DNA from: Okeania sp. KiyG1
Lineage (GTDB): Bacteria > Cyanobacteriota > Cyanobacteriia > Cyanobacteriales > Microcoleaceae
Reading direction: 5' to 3'
Length of the DNA: 64,000 bases
Assembly (NCBI RefSeq): GCF_014132355.1
Contig: NZ_BLZO01000171.1
Coordinates: 1 to 64,000, forward strand
Part shown: one piece after another, positions 6,886 to 64,000 of the stretch
Layout: the number at the start of each line of letters is the position of its first letter
Numbering within the stretch: position 1 is the first letter of the stretch
Made by a program: the position numbers and the translations under genes
The notes under the pieces: generated by a model
Seen by the model: only the letters and a program-made list of their open reading frames with translations
Databases searched by the model: none
Told to the model about the DNA's origin: nothing

Positions 6886-7546
6886 AAAAATTCTAATTAG
6901 TGTATAATACTCAAAACTAGACTAACAATTTTTAGTTAAATTTTAATCTAGATAGATGTTAATTTACCAAAAATAATTCAGTTATCAGTCTTCTGAATTG
7001 AAAATAAAATTCAGTAAGGCTTATGTATGAATAACGTAAGCATTCAGCTATCAGCAATTAGTAATGAATAATTATTTCTCAGGTTTTATCCTGGGACTTT
7101 GGCAGTAATTTTTTATTATTTTTCAATTTCAAAGGTGGCTTTTACGCCGACCCAAAATTATAGCTAATAGGTGACGGCTGTTTGCGCAGCATTCCACAGG
7201 AAATGCTTACTCAATAACAGGGTTTAAAAGCCCCACTAAATCATAAAATTGATAGTTTTCAATTAGTTCATAGTCAGCAATTCTAGAATAATTATTTTGT
7301 CTTCTAGTTTATGGCAACTGACCAAAAAAATCAGGTATCAAACCTCCCTTTTTCATAGGATAAAACAGAAAATCCTGTATCTTCTCGCCTCCTTATTATA
7401 GGAGGTACTGAAAAAGGAGGCTATAGCAATCATAAATCATTAGAAATATCCAGAAAAGAGGGAGTAGGGAGTAGGGATAAATTATCAATTATTTATGTAC
7501 GATAATTGATTTGATTTTTTATTATTAGAGATGTCTATTTTTCATT
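6886..7546. other. Intergenic, repeats only
   Basis: This stretch is AT-rich with no supportable gene. It holds a half-palindrome TTTGCGCAGCATTCCACAGG (about 7184-7203) followed by AAATGCTTACT, related to 25581-25612. Confidence 0.5.
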
Positions 7547-7810
7547 AATGGATAATTGATAATTACCTCGGGTTTTAACCGTTACGGAATTGAATATAAG
7601 GAATATTGTCTTTTCTCTTGGTCGATTGGATATGGTTAGGAAACCCATCCATCCCACCCTACGGGAAGCTGCGCTTTTTCCTGACGGAATGCTCCGCAAA
7701 CATGTCGCGTAGTGTTAACGTAGTTATGCGCCAGCAAAACGACCGCTTTTTCCCTTAAAAGGGGAGGCTTTAAACCTGAATTATTTAATTATTAATTATT
7801 AATTATTCGG
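7547..7810 (+). repeat. Family A repeat, copy 1 (with internal insertion)
   Basis: It begins in an AATTGAT-type run, then has GGTTTTAACCGTTACGGAATT, CTTGGTCGATTGGATATGG, a variable core, GACCGCTTTTTCCC, AAAAGGGGAGGCTTTAAACC, and ends in TTAATTATTCGG. The core holds an extra segment with AATGCTCCGCAAAC and GTTATGCGCCAGCAAAAC. Confidence 0.75.
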
Positions 7811-12390: not shown

Positions 12391-12637
12391 CGAATTATTA
12401 ATAATTAATAATTAATAATTAATAATTAATAATTAAATAATTCGCGCCTTGAAGCCTCCCCTTGATCGGGGAAAAAGCGGTCGAGGGATGGCGCAATTCA
12501 GAGCGGCTCTGTCAAGAGCGGGTCTCCTCGCCATATCCAATCGACCAAGAGAAGAAATAATATTTCCTTATATTCAATCCTCTCGGTTTTAACCAGAGGT
12601 AATTATCAATTATCCATTATCAATTATCAATTAATGA
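12391..12637 (-). repeat. Family A repeat, inverted copy 2
   Basis: The full repeat lies in reverse, from CGAATTATTAATAATTAATA through AAGCCTCCCC, GGTCGAGGGATGGCG, CGCCATATCCAATCGACC and GGTTTTAACC to ATTATCAATTAATGAA. Confidence 0.8.
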
Positions 12638-12985
12638 ATTCTACCATTTGTAACAAACATTTATCAGGCTTTATATAAAAGTTGAAGTTTTCAAACCAAA
12701 TTTTCGGTAATTATTAACTATTAATTGTTAAACTGTCTAAAGTTCATCATCAGTTTATATTCTAACCAATTCTTTCGAGTGCTAGATATACGATATATAT
12801 AACCTTGAATAAATACATAACATGAGAATTTCCAGCTCTTAGACAAAAAGTTATTTCTATCCTCTGCCTTTACTATTGATGAAAATATTAAGATGAGATT
12901 AATTTCTCTTCAAAAATAACATAACCCTAAAAATTTACCCGATAATTATCGTGCAATAAAAATTTTTATATTAGCCAAATAAATT
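12638..12985. other. AT-rich leader of the molybdopterin oxidoreductase gene
   Basis: No reading frame or repeat is recognised. It is probably promoter territory of the downstream gene, but no clear promoter was identified. Confidence 0.4.
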
Positions 12986-15211: not shown

Positions 15212-15339
15212 GTTGAAGTTTTGAGGATATTCAGTAAATTTGAGTTTAAAAGATGGGGATAAGATACTGTTGCAAAATGATTTGGGTGAGTTTCAAGGAA
15301 GAGTTTATTTAGCTCCGATGAAACCAGGTAATTTACGGA

Positions 15340-15434
15340 ATAATTAAGGTTTAAAGTCTCTCCTTTTAAGGAGAAGCAAGAAAAATTTTTCCTTTGAGTC
15401 AATTCTTTTCTTTTCCAGGAGAGGTAATTATTAA
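15340..15434 (+). repeat. Family C repeat
   Basis: TAAGGTTTAAAGTCTCTCC, then AGAAAAATTTTTCCTTTGAG and GGAGAGGTAATTATTAATTA. Copies are at 18731-18815 and 61538-61640. Confidence 0.65.
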
Positions 15435-15669
15435 TTAGGGTTTGCGCTCAAAAGTCTTTTAGTAGGGGTAGGAGACAGGAGACAGGAAGAACGGGCAATG
15501 AGCAAGGAGGTGGGAGCTAAGTTTTGTAAGAATGATTTTTCTGCCATAATCGTCCCAAAATACTAGCATGCATGAGCTTTTTGAGCTGAAAAGCTAGCAC
15601 TTTTTTAGACAAAAAAATGCGTTCAACCTTTATCTGTCAATGCTTTTAGATTTAATCAGCAAGCCCTAA
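15435..15669 (+). mobile_element. Family B MITE-like repeat
   Basis: It runs from TAGGGTTTGCGCTCAAAAGTC to ATTTAATCAGCAAGCCCTAA (each end written in pieces of 20 or fewer: TAGGGTTTGCGC and CAGCAAGCCCTAA). The interior includes the AATGCTTTTAGATTTAATC block. Confidence 0.75.
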
Positions 15670-23229: not shown

Positions 23230-24035
23230 ATTACTTTTTTGTTTTTTTTAGTTATATTTCTTTATTGTACTAAATTTTTCTGTTTGGTAATCAGGAGACA
23301 GGAGATAGGAGATAGGGAAAAAAGTGTTGTCATCACTAATTATCCGGACATGGTATTAGGAGGCGCGGATAAATATTGGATTTGAACTATTAAATTTTTA
23401 AATTCGTATTCAATAGAACATCTGTAATTTAGAGGAAGTAATTTGGCGATTACTGTATAATATCATGTCCGGTTGAATACTTATAAATAAACGACGGAGT
23501 CCTCAGGAGTCAGTCATCAGGAGTCAGGAGGGAAGCAAAAAGTAAGAAAGAAGAATAAAAAATAAAGAGGAGGAAAAGGAGAAAGTTTTTTTTATCACTA
23601 ATTATCCGGACATGATATTAATTTAAATTATATTGTTCTGAGCTGATACTGAATCCTTAAAGCCTAGTCTCAGCTTTTTTTCTAGCTTTGTCCAATCTGC
23701 ATGGTATCAGTTTTCCTCAGTTTTCCATGGTTAAAAAAAAATTCAGTTTTTCAGCTAATATCTGAACGTGAGGTTCACTCAACGGTTTAATTAATGATCA
23801 ACCTGCCATAGGGCGATCGCGTAGCGGTGCGTAGCACTATCGCCACCCTTCCTACTTCATCTAAAATTTATTTTGCAATAGTTTAATTATAGAAGCCATT
23901 TGGTATCTTTGAGTCATCTGTGGAGATAGGAAATAAACCGAAAAGATGGAAAAATATTCCAATACACCGTTCTACTAAAATCACCCAAACTTACCCATAC
24001 ATGGTTGCATGAGCTTTGGAGCTAGCTTCCTGCTT
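23230..24035. other. Intergenic with paired CCGGACATG repeats
   Basis: ATTATCCGGACATGGTATTA (23342-23361) and the inverted TATAATATCATGTCCGG (about 23457-23473) look like the ends of a ~130-bp inverted-repeat element. A second direct copy of the left end lies at about 23600-23622. AGGAGTC heptamers lie near 23500-23530. No gene is supported. Confidence 0.55.
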
Positions 24036-31174: not shown

Positions 31175-32311
31175 ATGCAATCAACAACAACTCAATCAAA
31201 TACCTCAAATATGGATATGCCAAAAAGTGGTTTACCAGTAACAATAATTACAGGTTTTCTTGGTAGTGGTAAAACTACTTTACTGAACCATATATTGCAA
31301 AATCAACAGGGTGTAAAAACTGCGGTTTTAGTAAATGAATTTGGAGAAATTGGTATTGATCATGAATTAATTGTTTCTCCCGATGGAGATGACACAATGG
31401 TCGAACTTAGTAATGGTTGTGTTTGCTGCACTATTAATGAAGATTTAGTTAATGCTGTTCATCAAGTTTTAGACAGACCAGACAAAATTGATTATATAGT
31501 TGTAGAAACGACTGGTGTAGCTGACCCATTACCAGTAGCTTTAACTTTTTTAGGTACTGAATTACGAGATATGACTCGCCTAGATTCAATTATTACTTTG
31601 GTCGATGCTGCTAACTACAGTCTTGATTTGTTTGACAGTCAGGCAGCACATAGTCAAATTTTTTATAGCGATATTATTTTGTTAAATAAAACTGACCTAG
31701 TTGAGCAGAAAAATTTAGACTTATTAGAAGTGAAGATTAGAGATGTTAAAAAAGATGCGAGAATTATGAGGACTAGCCAATCACAAGTGGCTTTGCCGTT
31801 GATTCTCAGTGTGGGTTTGTTTGAGTCGGAGAAGTATTTTGAAATAAAAGAAGAAGCTCATAGCCATGACCACGACCATGACCATGACCATGACCATGAA
31901 CATCATCATCACGGCCATGACCATGACCATGACCATGAACATCACGACCATGACCATGACCATGACCATGAACATCACGGCCATGACCATGACCATGAAC
32001 ATCATCATCATTCCAACCACTTAGAAAATGATGGTTTTACTTCTATTTCTTTTCAAACCGATAAGCCTCTTTCTCTTAAAAAATTCCAAGATTTTTTGGA
32101 TAATAAATTGCCTGCAAATATTTTCCGAGCAAAGGGAATTTTGTGGTTTGAAGAAAGCCCTCTACGACATATTTTTCATTTGAGTGGTAAGCGGTTTACT
32201 ATTAATGATGATGAGTGGAAAGGTTCTCCAAAAAATCAGTTAGTTTTGATTGGTCAAAATTTAGACCACGATCAGTTGCGATCGCAATTAGAAAACTGTG
32301 TTATTTCTTAA
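31175..32311 (+). CDS. CobW/COG0523-family GTPase with a His-rich metal-binding insert
   Basis: The protein has 378 residues. Walker A is GFLGSGKTT (27-35), the metal motif is GCVCC (81-85), the Walker B-like region is VVETTGVADP, and the guanine motif is NKTD (171-174). Residues 229-279 are almost only His, Asp and Glu with a few Gly, in HDHDHDHEHHHHGHDH-like units. The C-terminal CobW_C domain follows (FRAKGILWFEESP). Family members are zinc or cobalt metallochaperones using GTP. The His-rich loop suggests metal storage or sensing, most likely zinc. A tnpB right end lies 55 nt upstream of the start. No Zur-type operator was recognised. Confidence 0.93.
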   Translation: MQSTTTQSNTSNMDMPKSGLPVTIITGFLGSGKTTLLNHILQNQQGVKTAVLVNEFGEIGIDHELIVSPDGDDTMVELSNGCVCCTINEDLVNAVHQVLDRPDKIDYIVVETTGVADPLPVALTFLGTELRDMTRLDSIITLVDAANYSLDLFDSQAAHSQIFYSDIILLNKTDLVEQKNLDLLEVKIRDVKKDARIMRTSQSQVALPLILSVGLFESEKYFEIKEEAHSHDHDHDHDHDHEHHHHGHDHDHDHEHHDHDHDHDHEHHGHDHDHEHHHHSNHLENDGFTSISFQTDKPLSLKKFQDFLDNKLPANIFRAKGILWFEESPLRHIFHLSGKRFTINDDEWKGSPKNQLVLIGQNLDHDQLRSQLENCVIS

Positions 32312-35284: not shown

Positions 35285-36839
35285 ATGATTACTTTGACTT
35301 ACCAGTACAAACCTTTTGCCCAATAAGCAACAGGAAGCTGATCTTAATCTTATGCTTGATGTCTTTCAATAATTGATAATTGATAATTGATAATTGATAA
35401 TTACCTCTCCCTAAAAGGAAGAGGATTGAATAAAAGGAAAAATTTATTCTCTTGGTCGATTGGATATGGCGCAGGTTTCCTCGCCATCCCTCGACCGCTT
35501 TTTTCCCCTTGAAAGGGGAGGCTTTAAACCTGAATTATTGAATTATTGAATTATTGAATTATTAATTATTCGGTAAAAGTGTGTACAATTATGCTTTGAG
35601 AGAGCGTAAAGATTGGTTACGTTCAAGGAAATCACCAATTAATAGTTGTTCAATTGTTTCTGAATATATTATTCCTGCTGATGCAGCTTATACTAATTAC
35701 AATCATCAAGCAAAAAACCTCACAATAGCTAAAAAAACTCATCCTAGATTAAAGTCAGTTTCGGCTAAGAGCCGACATGAAAATGCTCAAGTTTTACAAC
35801 AAACTTTAAAGACTTTGGATAGAGCTTTTTCTGATATGAAATCTCTTGGTAAAGGTTTTCCGAGATTTAAGAAAAAATTGAGAAGTTTTGTCTTTTCTGC
35901 AATGCTCAAGAATTGCTTATAAAATAATAGAGTTAAACTACCTAAACTAGGTTGGATAAAAATTAGACAAAGTAGACAATATTCAGATGTTTTTCAAGCT
36001 AAACAAGCTAGGATAGTCAAAAAAGCAACTGGTTATTATTTGATGATTACTTTTACTTCATCAGAGTCAGCTCCGGATAATCCAGTAGGTAAAAAGTCAT
36101 TAGGAATAGATGCAGGGATAGAAAGCTTTGTAGCCACTTCAACTGGAAAATTAATCAAGTCTCCTAAGTTTTTATTGAGTCAACTACGGTAGGGGCGAAT
36201 GGCCATTCGCCCCTACAATTGCTGCAAAGAAGACTTAAGAAAAAAAAGAAGGGGTCAAATAATTGGTTAAAACTTCGTATGGAAAATAGCTATACTACAT
36301 GAAAAAATAGCTAATACTAGACATGATTGGCATTTCAAACTAGCTCATCAACTTTGTGATTTAACAGACAATATTTTTGTTGAAGATATTAACTTTAAAT
36401 CTTGGTAAGCGAGGTATTGTCAGAAAACAATCTAATGACAGTGGTATCGGTCAATTTATTAATGAAATACTTCCTTATATCTGCTGGAGCCGAGGCAAGT
36501 ATTATGCCAAAGTTGATAAGAATTATACCTCTCAAGAATGTCCTAAATGTGGGCATAGAAACAAGAAAAAACTCTCACAGAGAAATCACAATTGCAGCAA
36601 CTGCGGATATCAAATAAATCGTGATGTAGCTGCTGCACCCAACCCCATCCCCTCCCGGGAGGCGAGCAAGAGGGGTGGGTGAGGTTTAATAGCCGTGGGG
36701 CACGCGGTTTAAAGAGAAAGCTTGTGGAGATGGTCTGGCGGGGGTACAACTCAACTTGTTTGATTTGTTACCAAGCTTACGAATCTGAGAAACAAGAATC
36801 CCCCCTTATAATCGAGCGATTTAACGGCGGGAGTGTCAA
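35285..36839 (+). pseudogene. TnpB element of the F4 lineage, copy 2, with family A insertion
   Basis: It is collinear with copy 1 at 29752-31120. It has a family A repeat at 35365-35572 after codon ~25, a stop within the KNCL segment (about 35920), the same 28-bp palindrome at 36189-36216, a frameshift near LKLRMENS (about 36275), and the same family D palindrome at 36637-36679. RuvC-I (SLGIDAGIESF), RuvC-II (FVEDINF) and the zinc ribbon are recognisable. The right end finishes GGCGGGAGTGTCAA at 36839 and touches the 3' end of the penicillin-binding protein gene. Confidence 0.85.
35365..35572 (+). mobile_element. Family A repeat inserted in tnpB (filled site)
   Basis: Copy 1 reads GATGTCT|GTAAAAGCGTGTA at 29824-29843. 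Here GATGTCT is followed by 208 bp of family A and then GTAAAAGTGTGTAC. The ends are TTCAATAATTGATAATTG and AATTATTAATTATTCG. No target duplication is visible. This gives exact boundaries for the family. Confidence 0.9.
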
Positions 36840-46902: not shown

Positions 46903-47121
46903 TTTCATTAATTGATAATGGATAATGAATAATGGATAATTACCTCGGATTTTAACCATTACGGAATTGAATATAAGGAAATCTGATTTCTTATCTTGGT
47001 CGATGGTCGGACAGCTAGGAGACCTCACCATCCCTCGACCGCTTTTTTCTCCTTAAAAGGAGAGAGAGGCTTTAAACCTAGATTCGATTAATTATCAATT
47101 ATCAATTATCCATTATCCATT
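46903..47121 (+). repeat. Family A repeat, copy 4
   Basis: It runs from TTCATTAATTGATAATGG, through GGATTTTAACCATTACGG, CTTGGTCGATGGTCGG, CCATCCCTCGACCGC and AGAGGCTTTAAACC, to ATTATCCATTATCCATTGG. It sits between the uracil-DNA glycosylase and phosphoribosyltransferase genes. Confidence 0.8.
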
Positions 47122-47148
47122 GGTAAGTGCCAGTAGCTGGAGAAAATT

Positions 47149-52587: not shown

Positions 52588-52757
52588 AGAGGGAAAACCA
52601 AAATTTGACAAAAGCAGCAGCTTTTAACAAACGAGACAAATTTATGCGATTTTGATTTAAATAGACTACATAGAACCTGTCTTAAAGGCAGCAGGAGTTT
52701 CGAGAGTTGAGGGCAGAAGTTAGCTGTTTGATTAAAGTGAAAAATATTATAAGCAGT
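52588..52757. other. Short spacer after dynamin A
   Basis: Nothing recognised. Confidence 0.4.
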
Positions 52758-52996
52758 TCATTAATGGATATGGATAATGGATAATGGATAATTGATAATT
52801 ACCTCTGGTTAAAACCGCTACGGAATTGAATATAAGGAGATATTATTTCTTCTCTTGGTCGATTGGATATGGCGAGGAGACCGCTCTTATCAGAGCCGCT
52901 CCGCTTTTAGCGCAGCTTTGCGATAGCAAACGCCATCCCTCGACCGCTTTTTCCCCTTAAAAGGGGAGGCTTCAAGGCGCGAATTATTTAATTATT
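52758..52996 (+). repeat. Family A repeat, copy 5
   Basis: It runs from TTCATTAATGGATATGG, through GGTTAAAACCGCTACGG, CTTGGTCGATTGGATATGGC, GCCATCCCTCGACCGC and AAGGGGAGGCTTCAAGG, to TTAATTATTAATAATAG. It carries an extended core with CTCTTATCAGAGCCGCTCCG. Confidence 0.85.
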
Positions 52997-53042
52997 AATA
53001 ATAGAGTTGTTGGGAAATAAGGTAAAATGATTCAAGAATAAA

Positions 53043-60742: not shown

Positions 60743-61537
60743 TAATAAAGTTATGATAAACATAAGCTGTCCCTATATAACATAACTAAAGTGGGGCTAT
60801 GTTCGCTTTTTTCTATCTTATATAGATAGAATATTAGTCCTATATCTCAAGATAAACTTTTTTTGCTTTACTTATAGCCTTGTTTGATTAACTTTTAACT
60901 TGCTTGTACAGAATAAGGAAGAAGGCGTTTAGTTATCTACCAGATAAGGAAAAATCTTGCGTTGTTTAAGTTTTGAGTTTTTAGTATGTCCGCGCCCTTT
61001 GCTTCGACTGCTATACTAAACAACAAAATCTTCAGAACTAGCTTTCTGAAATTCTTTAGTTTTTCATTTATTTTCTACTTAGCTTTTTTAATGCTTTTAA
61101 AGTTTGGCAAAACTAACTTATGTTAAAGAGATAGAGGTATTTTAAAGGCTATTAGTTTATTTGAATCTAATTAACTTAATATTAAAGCACTTTTTAAAGT
61201 AGTGATGTATAGTTTAATCTTCATATCTATTCTCTATTGCTCCAAAATTATATATAGCAGTTGAAGTAAAGGTTAGGACAGATTGAGAGCTGAAAACTCA
61301 GACAACACCAGATTTTTCCTTCTTCCTTCTTCCCTCTTCCTTCTTTTTTCTGCTATACCTCATAAAATGAAAAACTGCTTTAACATTAAATCTATTCAGT
61401 GTTTTTATTCGATCTAATAAATGTTCAAAATTACAGCAGTTTTGGAGTTGAAGAGGTACATAATTTTAGGACTTTAGGGAGTAAAGAGCAGTGAAAAAAA
61501 AATTAATCTTAAAACTTTACCGATAAATTGTGCTTTA
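60743..61537. other. Intergenic, AT-rich
   Basis: Short CTTCTTC/GAAG repeats lie near 61318-61350. No gene was found. Confidence 0.45.
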
Positions 61538-61645
61538 AAGCCTCCCCTTTTAAGGGGAAAAAAGAAAAAAATTTTCCTTTTAGTTAATCCTCTTCTTTTC
61601 AAGGAGAGGTAATAATTAATAATTAATTATTAATTATTAATTAGG
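61538..61645 (+). repeat. Family C repeat with TTAATAA tail
   Basis: TTTAAAGCCTCCCCTTTTAA, AGAAAAAAATTTTCC, CTTTTCAAGGAGAGG and then AATTAATAATTAATTATTAA. A lone family B end (TTAGGACTTGCTGAA) follows. Confidence 0.6.
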
Positions 61646-63441: not shown

Positions 63442-64000
63442 AGGGTAGGAGTCATTTCAGTTATCAGTTATCAGTTATCAGTTATCAGTTATCAGTACCT
63501 CTGACTTTAGGCAGAGGCTTAAAATATTGAAGTTGATTTTTTCTTGGTCGATTGGATATGGCGAGGAAACCCGCTCTTATCAGAGCCGCTCCGCAGTCCG
63601 CCATCCCACCCTACTGGACTGACACACCTTAAATGGTGCATTAGAAAATGGGGAGATGGGGAGATGGGGGATGGGGGATGGGGTGACGAAAAAAGCTAAT
63701 GCACTATTTTAGGTGAAACAATCCACTACGGGAAGCTCCGCTACGACCACTGTCTTGGTCAATTGGATATGGCGAGGGGACCCGCTCTTGACAGAGCCGC
63801 TCCGAATTGCGCCATCCCTCGACCCCTTTTTCATCCCCTTGTAGAGCGGTAGCTCGCGGCGCAGCCAAGGGGAGACTTGAGACCTAATTTTTTGGTCAGG
63901 AGTCAGGATAATTATAGAACCCTTATGGTATCTTTGTCTGCAATGAAATTTTTGAGTTACGAGTCGAGAATGGAATAGAGTAGAGGCTTTTTTTGGCAGG
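63442..64000 (+). repeat. TTATCAG heptamers and two degenerate family A copies
   Basis: A TTATCAG run at 63455-63496 follows the J-protein gene. Family A cores lie at about 63538-63615 (CTTGGTCGATTGGATATGGC) and 63750-63885 (CTTGGTCAATTGGATATGGC, CAGAGCCGCTCCG, GCCATCCCTCGACC). A GGGAGATGGGG-type run lies between them. No gene is supported up to the window end. Confidence 0.65.

What the first reader, a model, noticed from the sequence alone, without database searches (positions are those of the whole stretch)
35365..35572. Family A is a mobile, strongly structured 208-bp repeat with exact boundaries
Seen: tnpB copy 1 gives the empty site GATGTCT|GTAAAAG; copy 2 has 208 bp inserted with no target duplication. 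Its ends are AT heptamer or octamer runs and its core pairs GGTCGA...ATGGCG with CGCCAT...TCGACC. At least seven copies are seen (7547, 12391, 35365, 46903, 52758, 63538, 63750). It encodes no protein and its mobilising enzyme is unknown.
Basis: partly seen in the sequence, partly recalled or inferred. Interest (0 to 1): 0.7.

Follow-up and report, generated by a model that had tools for sequence, protein, structure and literature searches.

The report
Transposase-free IS608-type hitchhiking elements
The 208-bp repeat is a small jumping element without its own enzyme, of the single-strand IS608 (IS200/IS605) type, which sits in hundreds of copies in a marine cyanobacterium and appears to choose its insertion sites by pairing a few of its own bases with the target.

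Summary
In detail: a paralogous empty site shows an exact 208-bp insert without target duplication. Read on the minus strand the unit starts immediately 3' of TTAC; 40 of 41 genome copies found without using flanks have TTAC (37 distinct flanks), and the other side carries no signal. Four further empty sites in same-genus genomes agree, one with TGAC. Both ends carry a subterminal hairpin preceded by a four-base guide (AAAG left, CAAT right). Guide and site covary by Watson-Crick pairing in 131 of 150 listed compact left ends (shuffle mean 59), following the rule published for IS608. Related genomes hold IS608-like elements whose tnpA ends in a closely similar left end; one has intact divergent tnpA and tnpB. 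So this is a transposase-free IS200/IS605 element (PATE) in the genus Okeania. The window's genome has no TnpA closer than 46% to that partner, and the partner's right end differs. Known kind; new are the family, coexisting target specificities, heptamer spacers, and a link to unexplained TAACTGA repeats.

The parts
35365..35572 (-). complete element (208 bp), read LE to RE on the minus strand, inside a tnpB copy
   Evidence: empty paralogous site; ends re-read
35573..35576 (-). target tetranucleotide TTAC (GTAA on the plus strand), kept as the LE flank
   Evidence: present in the empty site; TTAC in 40 of 41 own-genome copies, 37 distinct flanks
35526..35572 (-). left-end spacer, mostly tandem heptamers, pairs with the right spacer in the fold
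35504..35525 (-). left guide AAAG plus left hairpin (TCCCC / GGGGA)
   Evidence: sequence; DNA fold -4.9 kcal/mol, z -0.67, 50 of 200 shuffles as good, so not exceptional by itself
35454..35496 (-). optional core hairpin GGTCGA...TCGACC
   Evidence: DNA fold z -4.4; absent from the shortest of three orthologous copies elsewhere
35404..35428 (-). right guide CAAT plus right hairpin (CCTCTTCC / GGGAGAGG)
   Evidence: sequence; DNA fold z -3.0, 1 of 200 shuffles as good; TCAAT in 53 of 56 own-genome copies (41 by script, 12 by eye)
35369..35403 (-). right-end spacer made of tandem heptamers
35365..35368 (-). right cleavage site TGAA, last four bases of the element
   Evidence: junction
7541..7809 (-). 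complete element (269 bp), TTAC flank
12391..12638 (+). complete element (248 bp), TTAC flank, guide GAAG (G.T wobble)
46904..47122 (-). complete element (219 bp), TTAC flank
52757..53003 (-). element with clear right end, left boundary uncertain (no TTAC)
63451..63894 (-). sister-subfamily element (444 bp): TGAC flank, left guide CAAG, right guide TAAG, terminal TGAC, TAACTGA array, two core hairpins
   Evidence: empty orthologous sites L448 and L449; sequence
61521..61643 (+). short relative without core, TTAC flank, right end interrupted
15337..15437 (+). short relative without core, TTAC flank, right end interrupted

Best explanation
The unit is a non-autonomous element of the IS200/IS605 (IS608-like) kind, a palindrome-associated transposable element (PATE). 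A Y1 HUH transposase (TnpA), supplied in trans, binds the two subterminal hairpins on one strand. The left guide (AAAG) pairs with TTAC in the flank and in the target, and the right guide (CAAT) pairs with the terminal TGAA. TnpA excises the single strand as a circle and inserts it 3' of a new TTAC without target duplication. Shown here: exact insertion 3' of TTAC or TGAC, absence of target duplication, conserved hairpins and guides, guide-site covariation, presence/absence differences between closely related genomes, and encoding elements with a closely similar left end in those genomes. Inferred: single-stranded circle, trans-mobilisation, identity of the enzyme.
For: Five independent empty/filled loci: window 35365; three loci among same-genus genomes; window 63451. 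Flank-free copies: TTAC in 40 of 41, 37 distinct flanks; information 1.15-1.89 bits at -4 to -1, at most 0.22 at -20 to -5 and at most 0.24 in 20 bases beyond the right end (computed with four miscalled boundaries still in). The pairing rule g1:site2, g2:site1, g4:site4 fits the published IS608 pairs AAAG/TTAC and GAAT/TCAA (PMC5934647, passages) and, here, AAAG/TTAC, CAAG/TGAC, GAAG/TCAC and CAAT/TGAA. Covariation of g1 with site2: 131 of 150 Watson-Crick, shuffle mean 59; 132 of 150, shuffle mean 108.6; 0 of 20,000 shuffles reach either. Encoding partner: tnpA with a similar LE at its 3' end; in G003 an intact Y1 gene (Pfam Y1_Tnp E 2e-35) divergent from an intact tnpB (OrfB_IS605 E 6e-31); the G001 TnpA matches ISHp608 transposase at E 6e-20.
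Against: Best TnpA in the window's genome is 46% identical to the partner (genome 92% complete). No Y1 gene checked is framed by both ends of the repeat: 24 of 24 in the own genome, 70 of 133 in nine carriers. The partner's right end, read by eye in one copy without a second copy to fix the boundary, looks like GAAT/TCAA, not CAAT/TGAA. The IS608 preference for C after the target is not seen (A13, C9, G9, T5 of 36). One of 41 copies has no TTAC (L182). Guide exceptions: long left ends with TCAC and AAAG 6, TGAC and AAAG 4; TAAC with CAAG in 6 of 8; a repeated subfamily with GGGTATGCGCC-like sequence before the hairpin. The right-end guide of the TAACTGA subfamily is noisy (CAAG/TGAC 8 of 25).
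Confidence: 0.93

Rival explanations
1. A REP/BIME-like repeat spread by a TnpA-REP (RAYT) enzyme.
For: The own genome also holds Y1 genes of RAYT-like length (181-226 aa for four read). RAYTs are Y1 enzymes for which guide-led cleavage is proposed (PMC8266576, passages).
Against: The guides are AAAG/CAAT, not GTAG; the element has two different ends and inserts exactly 3' of TTAC; the IS608 pairing rule fits. None of the RAYT-like loci read is framed by the ends.
Confidence: 0.04
2. A classical MITE with terminal inverted repeats moved by a DDE transposase.
For: The heptamer runs at the two ends are largely complementary and give a long terminal stem.
Against: No target duplication at TTAC loci, a one-sided fixed flank, asymmetric ends. 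In the Cyanothece BG0011 relatives read, the left end has no array.
Confidence: 0.01
3. The repeats are mainly functional RNA or transcription-level hairpins (terminators, processing sites) kept by selection, mobility being old.
For: Strong folding.
Against: No Rfam match at gathering score in the window except one tRNA; insertion differences at orthologous sites; the internal module is gained or lost.
Confidence: 0.02

Closest known systems
IS608 (ISHp608), IS200/IS605 family (PMC5934647, abstract and passages seen)
   Same: Insertion 3' of TTAC, no target duplication, subterminal hairpins, left guide AAAG. The proposed partner element has tnpA and tnpB in divergent orientation with LE at the 3' end of tnpA; that IS608 itself is divergent is recalled.
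   Different: No genes; right pair CAAT/TGAA instead of GAAT/TCAA; spacers expanded by tandem heptamers; no preference for C after the target.
PATEs of Haloquadratum walsbyi (PMC3119063, passages seen)
   Same: Palindromes near the ends, no target duplication, too short for a transposase, ends resembling IS605-type elements, high copy number.
   Different: Archaeal host. Here at least two target tetranucleotides coexist with matching guides; I saw no such statement in the passages read.
REPs and TnpA-REP / RAYT (PMC6006769 abstract and passages, PMC8266576 passages)
   Same: Y1 enzyme family, guide-plus-hairpin logic.
   Different: No GTAG; two distinct ends and IS608-type insertion.
TAACTGA direct repeats of Beggiatoaceae, cyanobacteria and Bacteroidetes (PMC4679880, abstract and passages seen)
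   Same: The same heptamer arrays form the right-end spacer of the TGAC subfamily (window 63451-63894).
   Different: The paper treats the arrays alone, favours translational regulation and sees no transfer mechanism; it mentions in passing that they might mark transposon excisions.

Membership tests
Non-autonomous IS200/IS605 (PATE) | no target duplication | tested here: met
   4 empty/filled loci at TTAC. At the TGAC locus the element's own terminal TGAC equals the target, so a 4-bp duplication cannot be told apart
Non-autonomous IS200/IS605 (PATE) | insertion 3' of a fixed tetranucleotide | tested here: met
   TTAC in 40 of 41 own-genome copies, 37 distinct flanks
Non-autonomous IS200/IS605 (PATE) | subterminal hairpins at both ends | tested here: met
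   the left hairpin is not exceptional energetically (z -0.67), the right is (z -3.0)
Non-autonomous IS200/IS605 (PATE) | guide paired with cleavage site | tested here: met
   covariation, with the exceptions listed in the report
Non-autonomous IS200/IS605 (PATE) | ends shared with an element that encodes TnpA | tested here: inconclusive
   left end yes; right end of the encoding element differs in the one copy read
Non-autonomous IS200/IS605 (PATE) | too short to encode a transposase | tested here: met
   208 bp; no listed ORF of 100 aa or more overlaps 35365-35572
Non-autonomous IS200/IS605 (PATE) | moved by TnpA in trans through a single-strand circle | not testable with these tools
   needs biochemistry
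IS608 itself | preference for C at +1 of the target | tested here: not met
   A13 C9 G9 T5 of 36; preference stated in PMC5934647
REP / RAYT system | GTAG (or GT[AG]G) guide at the hairpin foot | tested here: not met
   AAAG 51 and GAAG 19 of 90 left ends, GTAG none (a set partly fetched by TTAC); CAAT on the right in 53 of 56
Classical MITE | target duplication | tested here: not met

The most novel reading that the evidence does not exclude
In one bacterial genus, natural mutation of a four-base DNA guide has repeatedly re-aimed a transposase-free IS608-type element family to different target tetranucleotides (TTAC, TGAC, TCAC). The unexplained TAACTGA and similar heptamer arrays of cyanobacteria, and perhaps of giant sulfur bacteria, are in large part the right-end spacers of such elements rather than translational signals.
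Probability: 0.4. Interest if true: 0.65.

Novelty: new variant of a known kind. Interest (0 to 1): 0.5.

Why it matters
IS608 retargeting by guide change is known from the laboratory (cited in PMC5934647). Here hundreds of natural insertions show guide and target changing together, so the pairing rule can be read and tested from genomes. It also gives a concrete mobile origin for abundant structured repeats in filamentous cyanobacteria, and a candidate origin for TAACTGA arrays, for which the published proposal is translational regulation with no transfer mechanism evident (PMC4679880).

Tried and rejected
An autonomous copy with the same two ends. Own genome: 24 of 24 PF01797 matches were read with up to 1.5 kb on each side; none is framed by both ends. 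Nine carrier genomes: 133 matches, of which 30 loci and 40 further regions, 70 in all, were read; the other 63, mostly fragments, were not.

The tnpA-like gene in L129/L040 with a short family member directly downstream looked like an autonomous element. It is an orthologous locus whose gene is flanked by other palindromes, so I take the neighbour as a chance insertion (a judgement, not a test).

The automatic left-boundary caller was bad (it walked past the true start); its flank table is not used. In one search four of 37 flanks were miscalled; all 41 were printed again, where 40 read TTAC and L182 does not.

A first test on long left ends with TCAC or TGAC was inconclusive. Of 31 distinct rows: TCAC with GAAG 6, AAAG 6, AAAA 1, CAAG 1, unread 4; TGAC with AAAG 4, AAAA 2, TTTA 1, unread 6 (the printed counter counts some rows twice). 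The compact left ends gave the clear answer. Only listed rows were tabulated, 150 of 572 and 150 of 1058, from few genomes (G002, G003, G004, G012; G003, G004, G012); reversed-pattern controls gave 17 and 26 matches. Distinct strings only: 61 of 80 and 73 of 91 Watson-Crick.

Of 69 pairs listed only 13 were printed; further flagged pairs were not worked out.

Full report
WHAT IS THERE. The two tnpB copies of the window differ by one exact 208-bp insert at 35365-35572 without target duplication. The host genome has 10.98 Mb in 198 contigs and 92% completeness; the window's GC is 36%.

COPIES. The unit as query finds 49 places in the own genome, 41 of them long. The left-end pattern finds 500 places against 2 for the reversed pattern. 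A tighter pattern matches in 14 of 60 genomes searched, the own one included: own 250, five same-genus genomes 74 to 234, G012 58, G017 107, G022 187, G035 95, and four others with 1 to 3.

JUNCTIONS. On the LE-to-RE strand copies read TTAC, then usually CGAA..., and at the far end ...TGAA. In 41 own-genome copies found without using flanks, 40 have TTAC and L182 does not; 37 of the 40 flanks are distinct, the rest lying in duplicated DNA. One search gave 1.15, 1.34, 1.19 and 1.89 bits at -4 to -1, at most 0.22 at -20 to -5, and at most 0.24 in the 20 bases after the right end, with four miscalled boundaries still in the count. Comparing orthologous DNA of five relatives, 69 candidate pairs were listed and 13 printed. 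Three independent loci in the printed set are insertions of this family, and all three show TTAC|element|flank with the empty site intact (L194, L201 and L202 against L203; L201 against L197; L203 against the window at 23542). The other printed pairs are another repeat family, an internal length difference, or plain indels. The element at 63451-63894 is absent from G002 and G005, where the site reads TGAC on the same strand. G004 also lacks it, with a slightly different junction; in G001 and G003 the place has diverged and tells nothing. Because this subfamily ends in TGAC itself, four bases there can be read either as target or as element end.

ENDS AND GUIDES. Left end: TTAC, spacer, AAAG, two bases, hairpin TCCCC/GGGGA. 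Right end: CAAT, hairpin, spacer, TGAA. TCAAT precedes the right hairpin in 53 of 56 own-genome copies (41 by script, 12 by eye; exceptions 2 AAAT, 1 CAAC). That set was chosen for a TTAC-like start and the TGAA end. For IS608 the published pairs are AAAG/TTAC and GAAT/TCAA, with A+16:T-3 and A+17:T-4 (PMC5934647, passages); PMC8266576 speaks of linear and cross complementarity (passages). The rule g1:site2, g2:site1, g4:site4 is my reading of this; it fits those pairs and CAAT/TGAA.

COVARIATION. Patterns that fix only T-AC-C and -AAG-YCTCC, at two spacings, give 572 and 1058 matches in 13 genomes, with 17 and 26 for the reversed patterns. The listings show 150 rows each, from four and three genomes. 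First base of the guide against second base of the site, first listing: T-A 72, G-C 46, C-G 12, A-T 1, other 19 (131 of 150 Watson-Crick, shuffle mean 59.0, 0 of 20,000 shuffles reach it). Second listing: 132 of 150, shuffle mean 108.6, 0 of 20,000. Distinct strings: 61 of 80 and 73 of 91. Copies are related by descent, so these are not independent events. Outside this family of cyanobacteria, Cyanothece sp. BG0011 shows TGAC with CAAG in 3 of the 5 distinct left ends read; the other two are TTAC with CAAG and TGAT with AAAG. L400 (BG0011) and L365 (Crocosphaera) also have TGAC with CAAG. Results against: TAAC goes with CAAG in 6 of 8; among long left ends TCAC goes with AAAG as often as with GAAG (6 and 6), and TGAC with AAAG in 4; a repeated subfamily with GGGTATGCGCC-like sequence before the hairpin has TTAC.

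ENZYME. None of the 24 Y1_Tnp matches in the own genome is framed by both ends. In G001, G003 and G022 an intact Y1 gene carries, at its 3' end and on the opposite strand, TTAC (G001, G003) or TGAC (G022), then a left end close to that of the repeats: G001 TTAC CGGAAAATTGGGTTT AAAG CC TCCCCC; compact repeat in G001 (L194) TTAC CGATAAATTGTGGTTT AAAG CC TCCCC. In G003 (L282) the Y1 gene (135 aa, Pfam Y1_Tnp) is divergent from an intact 400-aa tnpB (OrfB_IS605, Cas12f1-like TNB). Degenerate or more distant copies occur in G006, G011, G029 and G032. Of 12 left ends beside such genes (L244-L250, L259-L261, L272, L273), 8 are TTAC with AAAG, 3 are TGAC with CAAG (L246, L259, L261), and 1 (L249) is unclear; one further TGAC left end elsewhere has AAAG (L158). 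The one right end I could read (G003) ends TGTCAA with GAAT before its hairpin (by eye; no second copy fixes the boundary), that is IS608-like and not CAAT/TGAA. The G001 TnpA matches ISHp608 transposase, with solved structures, at E 6e-20, and keeps HVH and the tyrosine motif YIQNQ. The window's genome has at best 46% identity to it, so its own copies may now be immobile or served by a more distant enzyme.

HEPTAMERS AND CORE. The spacers contain heptamer runs; spacer and core lengths vary, which gives 127-312 bp among 56 own-genome copies. The core is optional: one orthologous insertion is 114 bp in G001 and 187 bp in G002, differing mainly by a 70-bp core. In the subfamily at 63451 the right spacer is a TAACTGA array of five units. 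Of 86 distinct TAACTGA arrays in the fetched DNA, 48 are followed within 16 bases by TGAC, against 3.9% by chance. By my strict script only 16 show a hairpin arm just before, and 11 show both; more show it by eye. The fetched DNA was partly chosen for this repeat family, so the share is not a genome-wide figure. PMC4679880 (abstract and passages) reports such arrays in Beggiatoaceae, cyanobacteria and Bacteroidetes, favours translational regulation, sees no transfer mechanism, and mentions transposon excision only as a possibility. Whether the arrays there have the same context was not tested.

LITERATURE. Searches of the held library: PATE with cyanobacteria gives only PMC3119063; IS608 with guide, TTAC and non-autonomous gives none; RAYT with cyanobacteria gives 4 papers, of which PMC6006769 was opened; IS608 with guide sequence, cleavage site and TTAC gives 2, of which PMC5934647 was opened; miniature inverted-repeat elements with cyanobacteria and IS200 gives 8, of which only PMC3119063 was opened; Okeania with transposable elements and repeats gives none; Trichodesmium with MITE gives 1, not opened; short tandem repeats in cyanobacteria gives 16, of which PMC4679880 was opened; IS200, IS605, guide, target site, non-autonomous and palindrome gives PMC8266576. 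Within these searches I saw no description of this family. ISfinder was not available, so an entry there cannot be excluded.

Noticed in passing
window 7035-7213; L195 6618-6816; L201 9152-9337: Another short repeat with inverted ends GTAAGCATTCAGC...GAATGCTTAC; overlaps at the empty sites suggest target duplications of 6-8 bp.
   Followed up: partly
window about 15431, 61644; L129; L040: A second repeat family (GGGTTTGCTGA...TCAGCAAACCC) sits inside the right ends of several family members, so elements nest in one another.
   Followed up: no
L002 and L003: One copy lies exactly between TTAC and the left end of another family member, that is at the other element's own target site.
   Followed up: no
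window about 30424 and 36187: Both tnpB copies carry the same short palindrome (GTAGGGGCGAATGGCCATTCGCCCCTAC) inside the gene.
   Followed up: no
L375 (Trichodesmium MAG), L324: The core hairpin occurs without recognisable element ends, so it may be a repeat of its own that was captured.
   Followed up: no
window 31826-32041: CobW-like metallochaperone gene with a long histidine-aspartate repeat.
   Followed up: no
L331, L338, L344, L351, L353, L357, L403: Repeated subfamily with GGGTATGCGCC or a close variant before the left hairpin; TTAC flank visible in L338, L344, L351, L357 and L403; the guide rule does not explain its target.
   Followed up: no
G060 (Cyanothece BG0011), L416-L424: Right ends with guide CAAG and terminal TGAC in most of these copies; left ends with the same pair were read in other copies (L426, L427, L429).
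   Followed up: partly
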